This document shows, one piece after another, positions 6,554-13,290 of a stretch of 16,011 nucleotides of DNA; the first letter of the stretch is position 1; each line of letters begins with the position of its first letter. The stretch covers positions 1 to 16,011 of the forward strand of contig JAAEOI010000697.1 of the NCBI GenBank assembly GCA_024244665.1. Direction: 5' to 3'. The notes under the pieces are model-generated. The model searched no databases. It saw only the letters and a list, made by a program, of their open reading frames with translations, and was not told the DNA's origin. The stretch comes from Bacteroidota bacterium. Its GTDB lineage: Bacteria > Bacteroidota > Bacteroidia > Bacteroidales > GCA-2748055. A program made the position numbers and the translations under genes.

Positions 6554-6617
6554 GCCGAACACCACAGGAAACATTAGCGGCTCAATTGCGTATACTAACT
6601 TTTTGAACCATACACAA

Positions 6618-7463
6618 ATGAACGAATCCGAAAACCAGGTTTACAACCCAACCAACGATCCAATTCAACCCCACACTCAGTTAAGCTCCTGCATCGAAAT
6701 CCTTGGATTCGACGAAATGGTGGCCAGGGGAGAACTCAACAAAATCCAGGTTCTGTATGAACGAATCGGACAGGAGATCTATAACACCCGTAAGAAAAAC
6801 TACTCCTGGGGATTCAGAGTAATCGAACCACAGTTCCTTAACTTCTCTGAACGCATTATCCTGACCTCAAGGCTCTATAAGGAGGAGACCCTTGCCGACC
6901 TGAACAGTGTGGTTTTCAAACTTTTTATTGAATTCAATAACATCATCCTCTCCACGGCCCTCCATATGCAAATACCCTTACGGGGAATGATCCGGATCGG
7001 GGAAACCTACCGGGGAGCCGTTCGATCGCGTAAACCGGCGATTATGTCGGGAAACGACCCTCTGATCCTATCCGACCTGCTGAAAGTATTCTCAATTGGA
7101 GAGATTTTTCCCAATGGTTTTTCCGAAGGGCTGATCCCTGCTGTGGATGTTCCATTCCATTTTGGTTCGGGGCTCTGCAAATCATTTTCTTCAATCACCA
7201 ACCTGGACTCGATTGGGATTTTCATGCCTGAGGAATACAATAAGAAAAACACAGCCGATGTAACCATCTTATCCAATATGATGGCTGATACCGACATAAA
7301 CGGCGAAAAATATTTAGCCTGTAACTGGAAAGAGTGGATGAGTGAACACTTCAATTGCTCGGCCGATACCATCCTTGCTTTTGCGGAAACTGAAGCAAAG
7401 GGGTCCACCGGATCACATTGCAAAAAGTGGCAGAGCCTGATTGACTACTCTGCAAGTCTTTAA
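6618..7463 (+). CDS. Hypothetical protein resembling a degenerate nucleotide-cyclase-like domain
   Basis: A soluble 281-aa protein with no signal peptide or TM helix and no family I can name with certainty. The order of short motifs recalls class III nucleotide-cyclase folds: CIEILGFDEMV (25-35) where active enzymes have FxDIxGF, NFSERIILTSR (75-85) where they have FSDSI-like, then IPLRGMIRIGE (119-129) and LDSIGIFMP (196-204). Both expected metal-binding Asp positions would be Glu here (E28, E78), so it is probably a non-catalytic or altered relative, if the resemblance is real. ATG 6618 is chosen; an in-frame TTG at 6603 would add five residues. The TauE/SafE gene starts 5 bp after the stop, suggesting co-transcription. 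The upstream acetyltransferase ends 64 bp before and may or may not be in the same unit. Confidence 0.7.
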   Translation: MNESENQVYNPTNDPIQPHTQLSSCIEILGFDEMVARGELNKIQVLYERIGQEIYNTRKKNYSWGFRVIEPQFLNFSERIILTSRLYKEETLADLNSVVFKLFIEFNNIILSTALHMQIPLRGMIRIGETYRGAVRSRKPAIMSGNDPLILSDLLKVFSIGEIFPNGFSEGLIPAVDVPFHFGSGLCKSFSSITNLDSIGIFMPEEYNKKNTADVTILSNMMADTDINGEKYLACNWKEWMSEHFNCSADTILAFAETEAKGSTGSHCKKWQSLIDYSASL

Positions 7464-7468
7464 AGAGA

Positions 7469-8224
7469 TTGCACAGTTTTCTCGCTTCATACGACCTCTC
7501 CTCTCTCCAGTGGCTGCTGCTGGCCCTGAGCGGATTGCTGATCGGGATGTCAAAAACCGGCATCTCGGGTCTTGGTCTGATGGTGGTGCCCTTGCTGGCC
7601 AATGCATTTGGTGGCAGGGTATCAGTTGGATTGCTGCTTCCAATCCTGATTTTTGCAGATATCTTTGCTGTCACCTGGTACAACAGGCATGCTCAGTGGA
7701 AGCATATACTCAGTCTGATCCCATGGGCCCTGGCAGGAATTCTGGCAGCTACCCTGCTTGGTAAAAATCTGTCCGATTCCACATTCAACCGCTTACTTGC
7801 CATCCTTGTGGTTTCAGGTATTGTCATTCTCATCTGGCAGGATATCAGATCCGGTAAGGTAAAAATTCCGGAATCGAAGTGGTTTGCTGCCACTCTCGGC
7901 TTCCTGGGCGGATTCGCCACAATGATAGGGAATGCGGCAGGACCGGTGATGGCTCTCTACCTGCTCTCCATGCGCCTCCCGAAAAACAGCTTTATCGGAA
8001 CCGGTGCATGGTTCTTCTTTATAGTGAACCTATCAAAGGTCCCACTGCATGTTTGGTCGTGGAAAACAATTACTATGGAATCTTTTATCCTGGATTTGAT
8101 GATGATTCCTGCCATTGCAGCTGGCGCTTTCCTTGGAATCTGGCTGGTACGGTTGTTCCCCGAAAGACTCTACAGGATCCTGATAATTGTCACTACTCTT
8201 CTATCAGTACTGCTCCTTTTCTAA
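7469..8224 (+). CDS. TauE/SafE family sulfite/organic-anion exporter
   Basis: Polytopic inner-membrane protein of 251 aa, the usual length for the TauE/SafE family, whose members export sulfite, sulfoacetate or related organic anions. Seven to eight hydrophobic helices are visible in two similar halves. Family features include LIGMSKTGISGLGLMVVPLL (24-43), the loop GLLLPILIFADIFAVTWYNR (54-73), and in the second half GFLGGFATMIGNAAGPVMAL, with its conserved Asn-Ala-Ala-Gly stretch. The start is TTG 7469: an in-frame stop lies upstream at 7442, and the next ATG (7547) would delete part of the first helix. It follows the preceding gene by 5 bp. Its stop overlaps the stop of the convergent receiver gene on the other strand. 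Substrate cannot be deduced; no taurine or sulfonate genes are nearby. Confidence 0.88.
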   Translation: MHSFLASYDLSSLQWLLLALSGLLIGMSKTGISGLGLMVVPLLANAFGGRVSVGLLLPILIFADIFAVTWYNRHAQWKHILSLIPWALAGILAATLLGKNLSDSTFNRLLAILVVSGIVILIWQDIRSGKVKIPESKWFAATLGFLGGFATMIGNAAGPVMALYLLSMRLPKNSFIGTGAWFFFIVNLSKVPLHVWSWKTITMESFILDLMMIPAIAAGAFLGIWLVRLFPERLYRILIIVTTLLSVLLLF

Positions 8225-8637
8225 TCCAGTTTGCCCGGGTTGGGCAAGATAGAGTCTTTGCCAACAGATTCATCATTCAGAAGTTCCTGGACAGCTGAAA
8301 GCATATCCTTTATAGCAAACGGTTTGGCGATCATTTTGCTTGCGCCGAAAATCTTTGCAATCATCAGATAATTATCAGCAGAAACCTTCCCTCCCCCAGA
8401 CATGGCAATGATTTTCAGATCTGATTTTAATCTTTTCATTTCCCGGATGGTCTCTAAACCCTCTTTTTCAGGCATGATGATGTCTGTGATCACCAGGTCG
8501 GGCTTGCATTTCTTCAAAAGCTCAATTCCTTCAACCCCATTTGTTGCCAGTTCAGTCTCATAACCGGAACGTTCAAGCATTTTTTTCAGCATGAACAAAA
8601 TGTTGGTTTCATCATCAATGATCAGAATCTTGTACAT
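8221..8637 (-). CDS. Single-domain response regulator (CheY-like receiver)
   Basis: A 138-aa stand-alone receiver. Acidic pocket D8-D9, phospho-acceptor D52 (VITDIIMP), conserved Ser80 (IAMSGG) and Lys105 (IAKPF) are all present, so it should be phosphorylatable. After the receiver fold (about 1-122) comes only a short tail of about 16 residues, with no DNA-binding or enzymatic output domain. It starts 8 bp after the hybrid kinase stop and is the third gene of the methyltransferase-kinase-receiver operon, so it probably takes phosphate from that kinase and acts through protein-protein contact or as a phosphate sink. In the Ralstonia phc locus the kinase PhcS is also followed by receiver proteins; equivalence is inferred. 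Confidence 0.93.
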   Translation of the reverse strand: MYKILIIDDETNILFMLKKMLERSGYETELATNGVEGIELLKKCKPDLVITDIIMPEKEGLETIREMKRLKSDLKIIAMSGGGKVSADNYLMIAKIFGASKMIAKPFAIKDMLSAVQELLNDESVGKDSILPNPGKLD

Positions 8638-8645
8638 CAGTAGGC

Positions 8646-10625
8646 TTATTTTATTTTCTTGTCTGTGAGTACCTTACGAATGAGTTCGCTAAATTCACTA
8701 AGGATTAGAGGTTTTGAAATGATATCCGCAATTCCATACTGTTCCATGGCATCCTTCGGAATCGAATCCTGGTAACCTGTGATAATTATCGATTTCAGCT
8801 CAGGCCTGATCTGTTTCATCTTTCCAATCAGTTCAGTACCCATCATCTTCGGCATAGCATGATCGGTCACAAGCAGATCGTATTTTTCAGGGTTTTCCGT
8901 GAATTCCTGCAGTGCTTCCAGGCTATCGCTCTTAATATCTACAGAATATCCCAAGTTTTCCAACATTCTTTTGCCCATAAATGTAATTTCTTTTTCATCA
9001 TCTACAAACAAAATACTGCCATGACCTTTCTTTACCTTCTGGACTGTACCCTGAAGTGGCACATAATCCTGAGAGTGCTGGGGAAGGTAAATTATAAAAG
9101 TCGCGCCATCTCCCGGTTCACTCTCTACGACAATGGTGCCGTTATTGTTATTCACGATTCCATGAACCACAGAAAGACCAAGTCCTGATCCGGAACCCAC
9201 CTCTTTTTTGGTGAAGAAAGGCTCAAAGATTCTTTCAATGGTCCGCTTATCCATCCCGTGCCCGGTATCAGAAATAATTAACCTCACATAGGTACCCTTC
9301 TGGATTTTAGCCGAACCATTGATGGGGCGGGTACCTACCTTCATCTTATCCAGCTTGATACTCAAAACTCCCCCGCTAACCATCATTGCATGGTAGGCAT
9401 TGGTGCAGAGATTCATAATGATCTGGTGCATCTGGGTAGCATCTGCCATCACTGTCCCTGTATCTGCATTCAGTTCCTGCCGGATCTCAATATTGGATGG
9501 GAAAGAGGCCCGGATCAGTTTCAACACCTCCTTTATTATATCATGCAGCATCAGGGGTTTCTTGTCAAAATCCACCTGACGGCTGAAAGTAAGTATCTGC
9601 TGCACGAGGTCTTTCCCCCGTGTGGCGGCTCCATTGATCTGTTCAATATCATATTTTAGGATGCTCTCATCCGACAACTCTTCAAGTGCCATTTCAGCAT
9701 ATCCAAGGATCGGTGTGAGAATATTGTTGAAGTCATGTGCAATACCGCCGGCCAGGGTCCCGATGGTCTCCATTTTCTGCAGTTGAATGAGCTGGCCCTC
9801 AATTTTGGCCTTCTCCTTCTCATGATGCTGACGAATTTCGATCTCAGTAAGAAGATCCTTGTTGGCCGTGGTAAGCTGGCGGGTCCTCTCCTGAACACGC
9901 TTTTCAAGTGCATTATTGGCAGCCTTCACCTTCATCTGCTCCTTCTCCAGGAGGATCCTCATATAGAAATCCCGTCTAACCGATATCTCCATAAAGTAGC
10001 TGATAAACATACCTATAACGTTGGCACTGATAAAGAAAAAATTGTTATTGATCAGGATCTCAATAGGGGTGTCCGAAATCCAGATAGCTGCCACTTCATA
10101 AGAAGCAACAATGGACCAACCAACAACAGTGGCATAAATAAAACGCGACTTGATAAAGGTATACCCAATGAGCAAAATCAGGAACAATCCTGCATAGTAA
10201 GAATAATTACCTGCCTTGTTGGATGCAAAAATCGTCATCACAATGATCGCAAGACCAGTGACATACATGATCGAAGCAAGCACAGGTTGCATGAATTTCT
10301 TAAAATGGCCGCTGAAAGAAAAAACGATAACAGACAGCAAAAGCGGGGAGATGATACAAAAACGGATGAACCAGAACATGCTCTTCAGTTCAGGGAACAG
10401 GAGCGCATCCAGAAAGGCAAATATCCCAAAAAAGAAGATGGCAATAATCAGCGCGAACCGCATGGGATTCAGAGAGCGATTGAAATAATCCTCCTTGAAG
10501 TCCTTCTCGTAATGCCTGATTTTTCCGTTGAAGGCCAGGGTAACCTTGTTTAACTTCCAGTCGTCCTGACCGGTGGTGGGCATCCCCAACAGATTCCTGC
10601 TGAATAATCCTCGAAAATTCTTCAT
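8646..10625 (-). CDS. Hybrid sensor histidine kinase, six-TM input with C-terminal receiver
   Basis: A 659-aa membrane kinase. Six TM helices lie at about 56-77, 84-104, 111-133, 142-160, 162-183 and 190-213. The last segments contain SDTPIEILINNNFFFISANVIGMF-like text (starting near 184), a pattern I recall from six-TM input domains of some cyclases and kinases. A coiled coil (about 215-285) leads to HisKA with H297 in AHDFNN, then HATPase_c with the N box (NLCTNA, N409), DTGHGM (453-458), FEPFFTKK and GSGSGLGLS. The C-terminal receiver (about 536-655) has VDDE, phospho-acceptor D588 and K638. The input domain has only short loops outside the membrane, fitting a hydrophobic ligand, as in PhcS, LqsS and CqsS quorum-sensing kinases. 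Its ATG directly follows the methyltransferase stop with no intervening base, which implies translational coupling. Confidence 0.93.
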   Translation of the reverse strand: MKNFRGLFSRNLLGMPTTGQDDWKLNKVTLAFNGKIRHYEKDFKEDYFNRSLNPMRFALIIAIFFFGIFAFLDALLFPELKSMFWFIRFCIISPLLLSVIVFSFSGHFKKFMQPVLASIMYVTGLAIIVMTIFASNKAGNYSYYAGLFLILLIGYTFIKSRFIYATVVGWSIVASYEVAAIWISDTPIEILINNNFFFISANVIGMFISYFMEISVRRDFYMRILLEKEQMKVKAANNALEKRVQERTRQLTTANKDLLTEIEIRQHHEKEKAKIEGQLIQLQKMETIGTLAGGIAHDFNNILTPILGYAEMALEELSDESILKYDIEQINGAATRGKDLVQQILTFSRQVDFDKKPLMLHDIIKEVLKLIRASFPSNIEIRQELNADTGTVMADATQMHQIIMNLCTNAYHAMMVSGGVLSIKLDKMKVGTRPINGSAKIQKGTYVRLIISDTGHGMDKRTIERIFEPFFTKKEVGSGSGLGLSVVHGIVNNNNGTIVVESEPGDGATFIIYLPQHSQDYVPLQGTVQKVKKGHGSILFVDDEKEITFMGKRMLENLGYSVDIKSDSLEALQEFTENPEKYDLLVTDHAMPKMMGTELIGKMKQIRPELKSIIITGYQDSIPKDAMEQYGIADIISKPLILSEFSELIRKVLTDKKIK

Positions 10626-11519
10626 TTATGCAGCCCTAATTCTTAAAAACAGGTTTACTCCCAATGCTTCCATTTCAACTTCCACCTGCTCTTCACTTGC
10701 TTCAGCCTCCAGGGCCATCCTCACCAGGTCGTACTTGGAGCGGTGATTCAAATACCAGTCCGACAGCACTTCCATGAGCCTCCTTGTCGGATTGCTGTTC
10801 GAGAAGTTACCGATGATAAACTCTCCTCCTTCATTGAGATACTTATAATATTTATTGATCATATAGATGAAATGCTTGTCCTTGAAATAATCAAAGAGTC
10901 CTGCACTCCAGATCAGATCATACCAGTGGTAGGGTTTGTACCTCAATACATTAATCTTGATGTACTCGATAACATCCTCAAAATCCTGGTTCTGCGATCT
11001 GGCAAAATCAATTGCATTCTGGTCAAAATCCACCAGGTCGAATTTGATATTGCTTTCGGGATGATCATTCAGGTAATCATGAACATCTGTAGCCGGCCCT
11101 GAACCAAGGATCAGAACCCGTTTTTTCCCTTCCCCGGGTTTATCAATCTCAGCGCACCTGGAGAGAAAATAGTCTTTCCTGTTGCGCACGGCGTGTGCAC
11201 CAGCCTGGTCCTGGAAAAACCGGTCCCAGTTACTGTACCTGGAATCAGGGTTCACATACCCCTTATAGATGTTATGAATGAGCGAATAATCCCCGGGGTA
11301 TCCGTAAGGCTTTACAAAACCATGACCAATCAGGGTATTTTCATTGAGGGATTCCCTAATGACATCTCTGAACAATCCCAGCTCTTCATCCTCAAGATTG
11401 TTCACTATGGCAGTAAATTCCTTATACTCTTCAGGCTCAGGACCTCCTTTTTCAACAAGTGCAACAAGAAAATTGCGATCCTCATTAGAAAGATGATTAT
11501 AAGTAACAGTAGGGTACAT
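10626..11519 (-). CDS. PhcB-like class I SAM-dependent methyltransferase
   Basis: A 297-aa cytosolic protein. The N-terminal part (about 1-115) carries KPYGYPGDYSLIHNIY (70-85) and NWDRFFQ...AVRNRKDYF, which I recognise as typical of the PhcB-related family. A Rossmann methyltransferase core follows: VLILGSGPATD (135-145) is SAM motif I, LVDFDQNAI (162-170) the acidic loop, WSAGLFDYF (204-212) and GGEFIIGNFSNSNPTRRLME (231-250) late family motifs. Ralstonia PhcB makes 3-hydroxy fatty-acid methyl esters used as quorum signals; many relatives are uncharacterised. Here it is the first gene of an operon with a six-TM hybrid kinase and a receiver, the same component types as phcB-phcS-phcR, so signal synthesis is a reasonable but untested inference. 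The 244-bp region upstream is shared with a divergent cytochrome gene. Confidence 0.85.
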   Translation of the reverse strand: MYPTVTYNHLSNEDRNFLVALVEKGGPEPEEYKEFTAIVNNLEDEELGLFRDVIRESLNENTLIGHGFVKPYGYPGDYSLIHNIYKGYVNPDSRYSNWDRFFQDQAGAHAVRNRKDYFLSRCAEIDKPGEGKKRVLILGSGPATDVHDYLNDHPESNIKFDLVDFDQNAIDFARSQNQDFEDVIEYIKINVLRYKPYHWYDLIWSAGLFDYFKDKHFIYMINKYYKYLNEGGEFIIGNFSNSNPTRRLMEVLSDWYLNHRSKYDLVRMALEAEASEEQVEVEMEALGVNLFLRIRAA

Positions 11520-11763
11520 AGGTTTTTAACTATTAATTAAAGAATAAATAGCAATACTACTTTAAACATGATTTCAGAAAATCAACCTTAAATGGTTGCT
11601 TGACACAAATCGGAACTAGTTTTCGGTTGAAGTATACGCAATTTGCTCATCCGGGTTACAAAGAATGAAAAATAGTGTATGATAGAATCGGTTTAAATAA
11701 GTGTGCATCACATGTCTTGCTTGAAAAAACAGGCGAAATTCGCTTTCTTTAAGCCATCTGATT

Positions 11764-13290
11764 ATGAGACGAAAAAGAAATAAATTCGGAAGGTTTCTAT
11801 TCCTTTCCGGTATAGTGTTGACAGCACTCCTGATATTCATTGGAAACAAGGCTATTGTACATACATCGGATGATGAATATTGCGCTTCATGCCATATTCA
11901 CCCCCATTCCACCCAGAGCTGGAAGCTCTCTACCCATTATGATAACAAGATGGGAATCCGTGTTCATTGCGTGGAGTGCCACCTGCCACCTCACGGGGAA
12001 GGATACCTGCTCGAAAAGGCCAGAACCGGGACAAGGGATGTCTGGTCCAAATGGTTCAAGGATCCTGAAAGCCTGAATTGGGAAGCCAAGTCTCAAATCG
12101 ACTATGCAATGGGCCATACCTTTGAGACCTCCTGCATCAAATGCCACCAGAACAACTACCCGCTGGGTTTGAGTGATGACGGGCTGGCGGCTCACCTCTA
12201 TTATGAGCGGCAGGAGGGTGCTCTCCACTGCATCAATTGTCACATTACAGTCGGGCATCATGATCCCAGCAGGCTGCACGCCAAGAATGTCGATTTTGGT
12301 ATCACCGAAACACCTGACGAAGAAATTTACACTGAGCCCGGTGTCATGGAGGGATTCAATGATTTCACTGAAAACATCCCCGGTTCCAATGTCAGCTTCC
12401 AAATGCTTGCCATCCCGGGGGGAACTTTCCGCATAGGCAGCCCCGAAGATGAACCCTTCCGATGGGAGAATGAAGGCCCGGTCACTGAAGTTACGGTCAG
12501 TCCCTTCTTCATGGCCAGGGTTGAAGTCACCTGGGCTGAATACATGTCATTCTTTAAACAGACCGGTGCGAAAGGAAAAACCTCTGATGCCTATCTCAAT
12601 GTTGAAAAGGATAATAAAGTGGATGCCATTTCCGGACCAACACCCCCGTGGGGTGCTCCCGACCAGGGCTGGGGTAAAGGAAGCATGCCGGCCATCACCA
12701 TGACTCACCACGCTGCAGAGGTTTATTGCCAGTGGCTTTCCAAGATCACCGGTAAAACATACAGGTTACCAACAGAGGCTGAATGGGAATATGCAGCAAG
12801 GGGCGGAACCACAACCCCCTATTTCTTTGATGGGGACCCGAAAAAATATGTGAAACAGGGAATCAGGAATAAGCTCTTTGGAGTGGATACAACTACCATC
12901 AACAGTTTCATTTCCTATGCCGAGAACAGCAATTCCCGTACCACCGTGCCCGAATTGAAGGAAGAAAATCCTTTTGGCCTGGTCAATATGCTAGGCAATG
13001 TTTCTGAATTCTGCTCGGACTGGTATGCGGAAGATGCTTATTCAGGGTATCCCGGGGGAAAGGTATCGGATCCAACCAGACAGGAAACGGGAGAGGAACA
13101 CGTGATCAGGGGAGGCTCGTTCCGGGATGGTGCCGAAAAAGTCCGGAGCGCATCTCGGGAAGCAACAAGAACAGTGGCCTGGTTAAAAACCGATCCACAG
13201 ATGCCCAAGAGTATCTGGTGGTATTCTGACTGTATCCACGTGGGATTCAGAGTCGTTTGTGAAACTACTGAACCGGAAATGAAAGAATAA
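11764..13290 (+). CDS. NapC/NrfH-like tetraheme cytochrome c fused to a SUMF1/FGE-like domain
   Basis: A 508-aa membrane-anchored periplasmic protein. A basic N-terminus and one TM helix (about 10-28) lead to four CXXCH heme sites: CASCH (40-44), CVECH (69-73), CIKCH (124-128) and CINCH (156-160). This is the arrangement of NapC/NirT/NrfH quinol dehydrogenases, which pass electrons from menaquinol to periplasmic reductases. Residues about 210-500 form a SUMF1 (formylglycine-generating-enzyme-like, C-type-lectin fold) domain: MLAIPGGTFRIGS (214-226), RLPTEAEWEYAARGG (334-348), NMLGNVSEFCSDWY (408-421), VIRGGSF (447-453) and GFRVVCE (494-500). In the C-terminal core, where true FGEs have catalytic Cys residues, this protein reads VRSASR, so sulfatase activation is unlikely. 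No nitrite or nitrate reductase is next door. Continuous reading frame argues against an assembly artefact. The next gene follows after 46 bp. Confidence 0.93.
   Translation: MRRKRNKFGRFLFLSGIVLTALLIFIGNKAIVHTSDDEYCASCHIHPHSTQSWKLSTHYDNKMGIRVHCVECHLPPHGEGYLLEKARTGTRDVWSKWFKDPESLNWEAKSQIDYAMGHTFETSCIKCHQNNYPLGLSDDGLAAHLYYERQEGALHCINCHITVGHHDPSRLHAKNVDFGITETPDEEIYTEPGVMEGFNDFTENIPGSNVSFQMLAIPGGTFRIGSPEDEPFRWENEGPVTEVTVSPFFMARVEVTWAEYMSFFKQTGAKGKTSDAYLNVEKDNKVDAISGPTPPWGAPDQGWGKGSMPAITMTHHAAEVYCQWLSKITGKTYRLPTEAEWEYAARGGTTTPYFFDGDPKKYVKQGIRNKLFGVDTTTINSFISYAENSNSRTTVPELKEENPFGLVNMLGNVSEFCSDWYAEDAYSGYPGGKVSDPTRQETGEEHVIRGGSFRDGAEKVRSASREATRTVAWLKTDPQMPKSIWWYSDCIHVGFRVVCETTEPEMKE

What the first reader, a model, noticed from the sequence alone, without database searches (positions are those of the whole stretch)
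8221..11519. PhcB-like methyltransferase, six-TM hybrid kinase and receiver in one operon: possible fatty-acid methyl-ester signalling in a Bacteroidota
The three genes are packed on the minus strand with 0 and 8 bp between them. The methyltransferase carries motifs of the PhcB family (GYPGDY, SAGLFDYF, IGNFSNSNPTRRLME). The kinase input is six helices with almost no periplasmic domain, as in PhcS/LqsS/CqsS, and a CheY-like protein follows. In Ralstonia, phcB-phcS-phcR-phcQ is a complete quorum system using 3-hydroxy fatty-acid methyl esters. Such a circuit is not, to my knowledge, described for this phylum. The functional equivalence is inference from motifs and gene order.
Basis: partly seen in the sequence, partly recalled or inferred. 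Interest (0 to 1): 0.8.

Follow-up and report, generated by a model that had tools for sequence, protein, structure and literature searches.

The report
Methyltransferase and six-helix kinase signalling operon
Some Bacteroidota bacteria carry a compact gene set that probably makes a small fatty signal and senses it with its own membrane receptor, organised like, but not the same as, a quorum-sensing system known from plant-associated bacteria.

Summary
In detail: methyltransferase, six-helix hybrid kinase and receiver lie in one minus-strand operon, gaps 0 and 8 bp. The operon is conserved: in 13 of 13 loci of the genome scan the kinase follows the enzyme, and 14 of 18 sampled Bacteroidales genomes with the enzyme have this kinase type in its operon. 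Six of these have a longer operon adding a receiver-kinase and a LytTR regulator. More divergent Bacteroidota pair the enzyme with a kinase whose input is not detectably related. The window kinase input is distantly homologous to PhcS (profile score 68.6, best of 24 controls 28.3). But the enzyme lies outside the PhcB clade and lacks about 150 N-terminal residues of PhcB. The cited motifs are mostly family-wide. The input also occurs in kinases without the enzyme, and its nearest solved structure is a diguanylate cyclase, ImcA. Best reading: a self-contained synthase-receptor circuit with a lipophilic, probably acyl-ester, signal. It works like Phc but is not a member. The molecule is unproven. 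New variant of a known kind.

The parts
10626..11519 (-). Class I SAM-dependent methyltransferase, 297 aa, first gene of the operon; GYPGDY (residue 73), LGSGPATD (138), SAGLFDYF (205), IGNFSNSNPTRRLME (236), WYLNHR (255)
   Evidence: model pLDDT 86.5 with class I methyltransferase fold; family tree
8646..10625 (-). Six-TM hybrid histidine kinase, 659 aa (6TM input - HisKA - HATPase - REC)
9921..10529 (-). Six-helix membrane input domain (residues 33-235), distant homologue of the PhcS input
9579..9758 (-). HisKA domain (residues 290-349), predicted phospho-accepting His297 in IAHDFNN
9078..9443 (-). HATPase_c domain (residues 395-516)
8682..9014 (-). Receiver domain of the kinase (residues 538-648), predicted phospho-acceptor Asp588
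8221..8637 (-). Stand-alone CheY-like receiver, 138 aa, predicted phospho-acceptor Asp52, no output domain
11520..11763 (.). 244-bp region between the operon and the divergent cytochrome gene; presumed promoter region, not analysed
   Evidence: coordinates

Best explanation
The operon encodes a self-contained synthase-receptor circuit. The methyltransferase makes a lipophilic small molecule, most likely by methylating the carboxyl of an acyl chain (inferred). That molecule stays in or crosses the membrane and is detected inside the membrane by the six-helix bundle of the kinase (inferred). The kinase then autophosphorylates on His297 and passes phosphate to its own receiver and to the stand-alone CheY-like receiver, which relays by protein contact because it has no output domain (inferred from domains). 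In sister operons the chain includes a LytTR DNA-binding regulator, so there the circuit probably controls transcription. It works like Phc but is a parallel branch, not an orthologous Phc system. That the signal is specifically a 3-hydroxy fatty-acid methyl ester I put at about half of the stated confidence.
For: Gene order kept: kinase directly follows the methyltransferase in 13 of 13 scan loci, receiver in 11 of 11 whose contig reaches that far (one kinase frame broken, L014). 14 of 18 methyltransferase-bearing Bacteroidales genomes have this kinase type in the same operon, and in one more the ends of two contigs are consistent with it. In 295 Bacteroidales genomes 16 of 18 with the methyltransferase have the input, against 20 of 277 without it (Fisher p 9e-15; genomes not independent). 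In seven further Bacteroidota genomes the enzyme (37-42% identical where intact) is beside another multi-TM hybrid kinase. A Pseudanabaena plasmid has a relative tail-to-tail with a kinase of the same input type. Input homologous to PhcS: hhalign score 68.6, 191 collinear columns, best of 24 controls 28.3. All 18 checked conserved residues are shared with seven PhcB rows, against 14-16 in rhizobial, Enterobacter and Pseudanabaena members (columns were chosen for conservation). Relatives sit in acyl-chain settings: fused to polyketide synthases in Enterobacter and in a Bacteroidales genome, and beside a FeeM-type N-acyl synthase and a fatty-acid desaturase in Deinococcus.
Against: No substrate evidence: the model is a generic class I methyltransferase. 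PhcB is a separate clade on a stem of 2.76 changes per column. The input occurs without the enzyme in 20 of 36 Bacteroidales genomes that have it and in 15 of 17 in the phylum sample, where co-occurrence is not significant (p 0.089); inputs of kinases not beside the enzyme match PhcS equally well (71.0). The PhcS-input HMM scores the window kinase alone only weakly (5.0 bits; permease control 1.1). The nearest solved structure, ImcA, is controlled by a partner protein, IsmP, in an iron response (passages). Members in G262, G267, G027, G490, G562 and G574 have no six-TM kinase neighbour.
Confidence: 0.5

Rival explanations
1. Cell-autonomous envelope control: the methyltransferase modifies a membrane lipid, quinone or other envelope component, and the six-TM kinase senses the state of the membrane rather than a released signal. 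No cell-cell signalling is involved.
For: A six-TM input with almost no periplasmic part reads the membrane interior; the input class occurs in genomes without the enzyme; the divergent neighbour encodes a multihaem cytochrome fusion, seen beside the operon in 8 of 13 scan loci (two of the other five contigs start too close to tell).
Against: The enzyme family is found with kinases of two input types that show no detectable relation, which favours a link to a sensed product over one particular lipid. The cytochrome gene is not beside the operon in L013-L015 while the pairing stays.
Confidence: 0.27
2. Protein methylation: a CheR-like enzyme methylates the kinase or a receiver to adapt its sensitivity.
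For: Weak Pfam CheR match (E 0.09 for the window enzyme; 0.0011 for Paraburkholderia PhcB); the Deinococcus relative is annotated CheR.
Against: The match is far below the cut-off and only in the SAM fold; the kinase has no chemoreceptor signalling domain. PhcB, with the same weak CheR match, is reported to make a methyl ester (PMC10653808, passages; PMC8578825 and PMC9197120, abstracts in the listing).
Confidence: 0.12
3. The genes are neighbours without functional link.
For: Both genes also occur apart.
Against: 0-bp spacing, conservation at 61-84% identity, and pairing again in other operon types and on a cyanobacterial plasmid.
Confidence: 0.04

Closest known systems
Phc system (phcBSRQ) of Ralstonia/Cupriavidus/Paraburkholderia
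   Same: Methyltransferase of the same broad family (26-30% identity to 11 PhcB-type rows), kinase with a homologous six-TM input, receivers in one operon. The sister operons add a receiver-kinase protein with the architecture described for PhcR (PMC10653808, passages).
   Different: Methyltransferase outside the PhcB clade and about 165 residues shorter, nearly all at the N-terminus; kinase is hybrid; no PhcQ-like gene in the window operon; sister operons include a LytTR regulator, whereas PhcR, PhcQ and ChpA are described as lacking a DNA-binding site (PMC11960443, passages).
LqsA/LqsS and CqsA/CqsS
   Same: Autoinducer synthase with a six-TM histidine-kinase receptor for a lipophilic ligand (PMC4821796, passages); lqsA and lqsS lie in one cluster (PMC10653808, passages).
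   Different: Different synthase and signal. The kinase inputs were not compared because no CqsS or LqsS sequence was fetched.
ImcA, six-TM diguanylate cyclase of Pseudomonas aeruginosa (PDB 8WCN)
   Same: Nearest solved structure of the input: profile A2 E 0.0015 over positions 3-193, Foldseek E 4.9e-3, TM 0.58 of query, probability 1.00. The narrower profile A5 gave E 0.43.
   Different: Drives a cyclase; inhibited by the protein IsmP in an iron response (PMC10904736, passages).
Six-TM anchors of adenylyl cyclases
   Same: Weak profile match of AC5 (E 0.012) and weak fold match of AC9 (Foldseek E 0.94, probability 0.97); proposed orphan receptors (PMC4821796, passages).
   Different: Cyclase output; ligands unknown.

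Membership tests
Phc quorum-sensing system | Methyltransferase groups with PhcB | tested here: not met
   Seven PhcB rows form their own clade, 100/100 support, stem 2.76; the window enzyme lies in the Bacteroidota clade
Phc quorum-sensing system | PhcB length, with a long N-terminal region before the methyltransferase domain | tested here: not met
   297 aa with GYPGDY at 73, against 463-506 aa with the motif at 222-259 in seven PhcB rows
Phc quorum-sensing system | Kinase input homologous to PhcS | tested here: met
   hhalign probability 96.6, E 5.6e-10, 191 columns, score 68.6; the 24 controls reach at most 28.3; the first, smaller profiles gave 31.4 against at most 22.7
Phc quorum-sensing system | Synthase, kinase and receiver in one operon | tested here: met
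Phc quorum-sensing system | PhcQ (receiver plus C-terminal region) | tested here: not met
   No such gene in the window operon
Phc quorum-sensing system | PhcA-type LysR target | not testable with these tools
   No whole genome is held for the window
Phc quorum-sensing system | Product is a 3-hydroxy fatty-acid methyl ester | not testable with these tools
   Needs chemistry
MASE8 input domain (Pfam PF20968) | Match above the curated cut-off of 26.2 bits | tested here: not met
   Window kinase not listed up to E 10; relative L013 12.6 bits over positions 8-154 of 154. PhcS proteins P0122 and P0283 also fall below the cut-off with this copy (17.6 and 10.3 bits), although the protein database tags them PF20968.4 (for P0283 and the relatives of P0122)
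Broad PhcB-like class I methyltransferase family | Shared conserved residues (K70 P71 G73 Y74 G76 D77 A206 G207 L208 F209 D210 Y211 N238 P244 M249 W255 L257 R260) | tested here: met
   18 of 18 in the window and in 33 further rows' near-complete sets; fewest in Pantoea (9, does not cover the first six), L102b (12), Enterobacter and Pseudanabaena (14)
LqsS/CqsS kinases | Input homologous to LqsS or CqsS | not tested
   No such sequence was fetched

The most novel reading that the evidence does not exclude
A broad, mostly unnoticed class of synthase-receptor circuits in which one acyl-directed methyltransferase family is paired with interchangeable six-helix membrane kinases: at least two input types in Bacteroidota, PhcS in Burkholderiales and a cyanobacterial version. 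This would give Bacteroidota their own diffusible fatty-ester language, with Phc as only its best-known member.
Probability: 0.35. Interest if true: 0.78.

Novelty: new variant of a known kind. Interest (0 to 1): 0.56.

Why it matters
Little is known of dedicated signal synthase-receptor pairs in Bacteroidota (my general knowledge, not a search result). A compact operon with an enzyme, a membrane receptor and, in relatives, a DNA-binding regulator makes the question testable by expressing one gene and reading the lipid extract. The recurrence of the enzyme family beside two different multi-TM kinase types also gives a handle on what such inputs, including the orphan six-TM anchors of cyclases, detect.

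Tried and rejected
Single-sequence BLASTP of the sensor against the Paraburkholderia PhcS sensor found nothing; only profiles did. A first profile comparison with 13 and 15 sequences gave only probability 28 (score 31.4). The input of the second kinase type did not match PhcS or the window type. I recall similarity of that type to CqsS/LqsS but had no sequence to test it; among NCBIfam models its kinase half matches LuxN best (three kinases scanned). A narrower sensor profile (A5) matched ImcA only at E 0.43, against 0.0015 for the broader A2. Genes beside the 17 phylum-sample sensors were read only from their first residues and matches to my own profiles; I saw no signal-synthase pattern, but they were not family-scanned. 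The window's own genome could not be searched. An origin inside the PhcB clade was rejected by the tree, with the caution that the Pseudanabaena, Pantoea, Enterobacter, Deinococcus and L102 rows have long branches and unsure places. The tree used the query and 6 of the 120 PhcB-type proteins listed, and a hand-picked 29 rows from Bacteroidota loci. The profile set of inputs not beside the enzyme used 14 of 17 loci; the three weakest (L117-L119) were left out. Corrected on checking: I first held the cited motifs to be equally family-wide; one search shows the exact AGLFDY set in PhcB, most Bacteroidota and Deinococcus rows but not in rhizobial, Enterobacter or Pseudanabaena rows.

Full report
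What is there. The window carries three tightly packed minus-strand genes: a 297-aa class I methyltransferase (10626-11519), a 659-aa hybrid histidine kinase (8646-10625) and a 138-aa receiver (8221-8637), with gaps of 0 and 8 bp. Pfam finds HisKA, HATPase_c and Response_reg above cut-off in the kinase, no input domain, and only sub-cut-off general methyltransferase models in the first gene. The input is modelled as six long helices joined by short loops, at moderate confidence (mean pLDDT 71.4, pTM 0.57). The methyltransferase model is good (pLDDT 86.5) but generic: 1095 PDB chains match at E 0.001 or better.

Host. Among the 120 protein hits listed, those with an organism name are Bacteroidota or Bacteroidales MAGs, and JGI labels several 'extracellular factor (EF) 3-hydroxypalmitic acid methyl ester biosynthesis protein'. 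No whole genome is held for the window.

The pairing is conserved. One scan of genome contigs matched 170 stretches, of which 13 encode a relative; all 13 are Bacteroidales-type MAG loci, 61-84% identical. In 13 of 13 the kinase follows the methyltransferase; in the 11 whose contig reaches far enough the receiver follows the kinase. In L014 the kinase frame is broken. In an evenly drawn sample of 395 Bacteroidota genomes 12 have the enzyme at E 1e-10 (profile A1). One of them, the centre genome, has the window type of operon. In seven more (G142, G214, G194, G206, G049, G028, G080) the enzyme sits beside a 703-830-aa kinase with two receivers; six hydrophobic segments are counted in the input of six of these eight kinases, four in L034 and five in L042. 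Pfam, run on six of the eight, gives HATPase_c and two Response_reg stretches above cut-off in each and HisKA below cut-off. Intact enzymes of this group are 37-42% identical to the window's; the G080 one is broken. Four genomes have no such neighbour (G262, G267, G027, G162; in G162 the gene is broken and lies near a contig end). In 295 Bacteroidales genomes 18 have the enzyme (profile A3). In 14 of the 18 a kinase with the window-type input is in the same operon. In G455 enzyme and kinase are on two short contigs whose ends fit one operon (L099, L120). G490, G562 and G574 lack the link; G490 has window-type inputs elsewhere and another kind of kinase 0.9 kb away.

A longer sister operon. In six loci (L093-L098) the order is kinase with window-type input, receiver (fused or separate), a 352-368-aa receiver-kinase, a 243-268-aa receiver with a C-terminal part, then the methyltransferase. 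Pfam shows Response_reg-HisKA_2-HATPase_c for the first and Response_reg-LytTR for the second in six of six. The first has the architecture described for PhcR, a receiver plus kinase domain (PMC10653808, passages). The second gives the circuit a DNA-binding output that the window operon lacks.

Co-occurrence and its limits. In the Bacteroidales sample the window-type input occurs in 36 of 295 genomes; 16 of the 18 enzyme-bearing genomes have it, against 20 of 277 others (Fisher p 9e-15). The genomes are related, so the p-value is too small. In the phylum sample the input occurs in 17 of 395 genomes and only 2 of these also have the enzyme (p 0.089). So the input is a general module, and the enzyme is the part that is usually paired.

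Kinase input against PhcS. The yardstick came from a Paraburkholderia graminis plasmid with a methyltransferase, a six-TM kinase and two response-regulator genes in a row. Its methyltransferase is 67-69% identical to the listed Cupriavidus and Massilia proteins, and several listed homologues carry the PhcB product name; its kinase matches proteins named PhcS. Input profiles compared with hhalign gave score 31.4 with small sets (13 and 15 sequences; best control 22.7) and 68.6 (probability 96.6, 191 collinear columns) with 20 inputs, 19 of them beside the enzyme, against 15 PhcS inputs. The 24 controls (SafE transporters and reversed profiles) reached at most 28.3. Fourteen inputs from kinases not beside the enzyme match PhcS equally well (71.0). 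The second kinase type does not match (15.0). Single sequences are weak: the PhcS-input HMM gives the window kinase 5.0 bits, sister-operon kinases 4.1-15.6, a permease control 1.1. The Pseudanabaena plasmid kinase, 25% identical to the window input, stands tail to tail with a methyltransferase of this family. A survey of CPR and DPANN genomes found no PhcS homologue there that matches the PhcS sensory region (PMC7567580, passages); here that region is what matches.

Solved structures. Input profile A2 matches ImcA (8WCN) at E 0.0015 and adenylyl cyclase 5 at 0.012, with HHAT acyltransferases in between over a short stretch. Foldseek ranks ImcA first (E 4.9e-3, probability 1.00); adenylyl cyclase 9 follows at E 0.9 with probability 0.90-0.97 among unrelated helical bundles. 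The narrower profile A5 gave ImcA only E 0.43. ImcA is inhibited by the protein IsmP in an iron response (PMC10904736, passages). So a related input need not bind a fatty ester.

Methyltransferase against PhcB. BLASTP gives 28% identity over 245 residues to the Paraburkholderia enzyme. A 42-row tree puts the seven PhcB rows in one clade (100/100) on a stem of 2.76 changes per column, and the window enzyme in a Bacteroidota clade. Of 18 conserved residues checked, the window enzyme, the seven PhcB rows and the Deinococcus row have all; rhizobial rows have 16, Enterobacter and Pseudanabaena 14. PhcB carries about 150 more residues before GYxGDY (222 or later against 73). Several outgroup rows have long branches, so their places are unsure.

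Why an acyl substrate is likely. Relatives are C-terminal parts of polyketide synthases in Enterobacter and in a Bacteroidales genome (two such domains), and a Deinococcus relative lies next to a FeeM-type N-acyl amino acid synthase and a fatty-acid desaturase. PhcB itself is reported to make 3-hydroxy fatty-acid methyl esters (PMC10653808, passages). This is context, not proof. Two rhizobial relatives looked at lie near EAL or GGDEF genes instead, and a Pantoea one near none of these.

Mechanism, with steps marked. Shown: operon, domains, conserved pairing, input homology to PhcS. Inferred: acyl-carboxyl methylation, a lipophilic signal, detection within the membrane, phosphorylation of His297, Asp588 and Asp52. 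Unknown: chain length, release from the cell, targets.

Print record. No paper describing PhcB-type signalling in Bacteroidota was among the listings (one search lists 30 of 91 papers, one search lists 12 of 58). Four joint hits were opened by passages and mention PhcB or the ester only in a list of surveyed synthases, in discussion, as a freezer brand or in references; the others were judged from titles and abstracts. Subscription papers are mostly not held, so this is not proof of absence.

Verdict. Observation confirmed. Interpretation partly supported: it works like Phc at the level of organisation, but it fails three tested membership features (clade, length, PhcQ) and the signal is unproven.

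Noticed in passing
window 11764-13290 (+): Divergent neighbour: a 508-aa protein joining a NrfH/NapC-type multihaem cytochrome region (residues 16-165) to a PvdO-type region (213-468), both below NCBIfam cut-offs; it lies beside the operon in 8 of 13 scan loci.
   Followed up: partly
window 7469-8224 (+): TauE/SafE-family permease, convergent with the receiver gene and overlapping its end by 4 bp; seen beside it in 9 of 13 scan loci, two of the other contigs ending before it.
   Followed up: partly
window 6603-7463 (+): 286-aa protein with no Pfam match, conserved next to the permease or receiver gene in 5 of 13 scan loci.
   Followed up: no
L102 439-8775: 2778-aa polyketide synthase in a Bacteroidales genome ending in two tandem stretches that match this methyltransferase family.
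   Followed up: partly
L040 5541-6998: 485-aa fusion of a cyclic-nucleotide-binding domain to a methyltransferase of this family in a Bacteroidota genome.
   Followed up: no
L043 6776-7669: Pseudanabaena plasmid protein that is a six-TM input of the window type (33% identical) with no kinase domain.
   Followed up: partly
L044 4831-8472: Paraburkholderia caribensis kinase with an input 35% identical to the second Bacteroidota kinase type, directly after a KASIII-type synthase gene: another possible synthase-receptor pair.
   Followed up: no
L049 347-3705: Deinococcus plasmid cluster of fatty-acid desaturase, FeeM-type N-acyl synthase and two methyltransferases.
   Followed up: no
L014 6915-8898: Kinase frame broken within the HATPase region in this MAG; left as is.
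   Followed up: no
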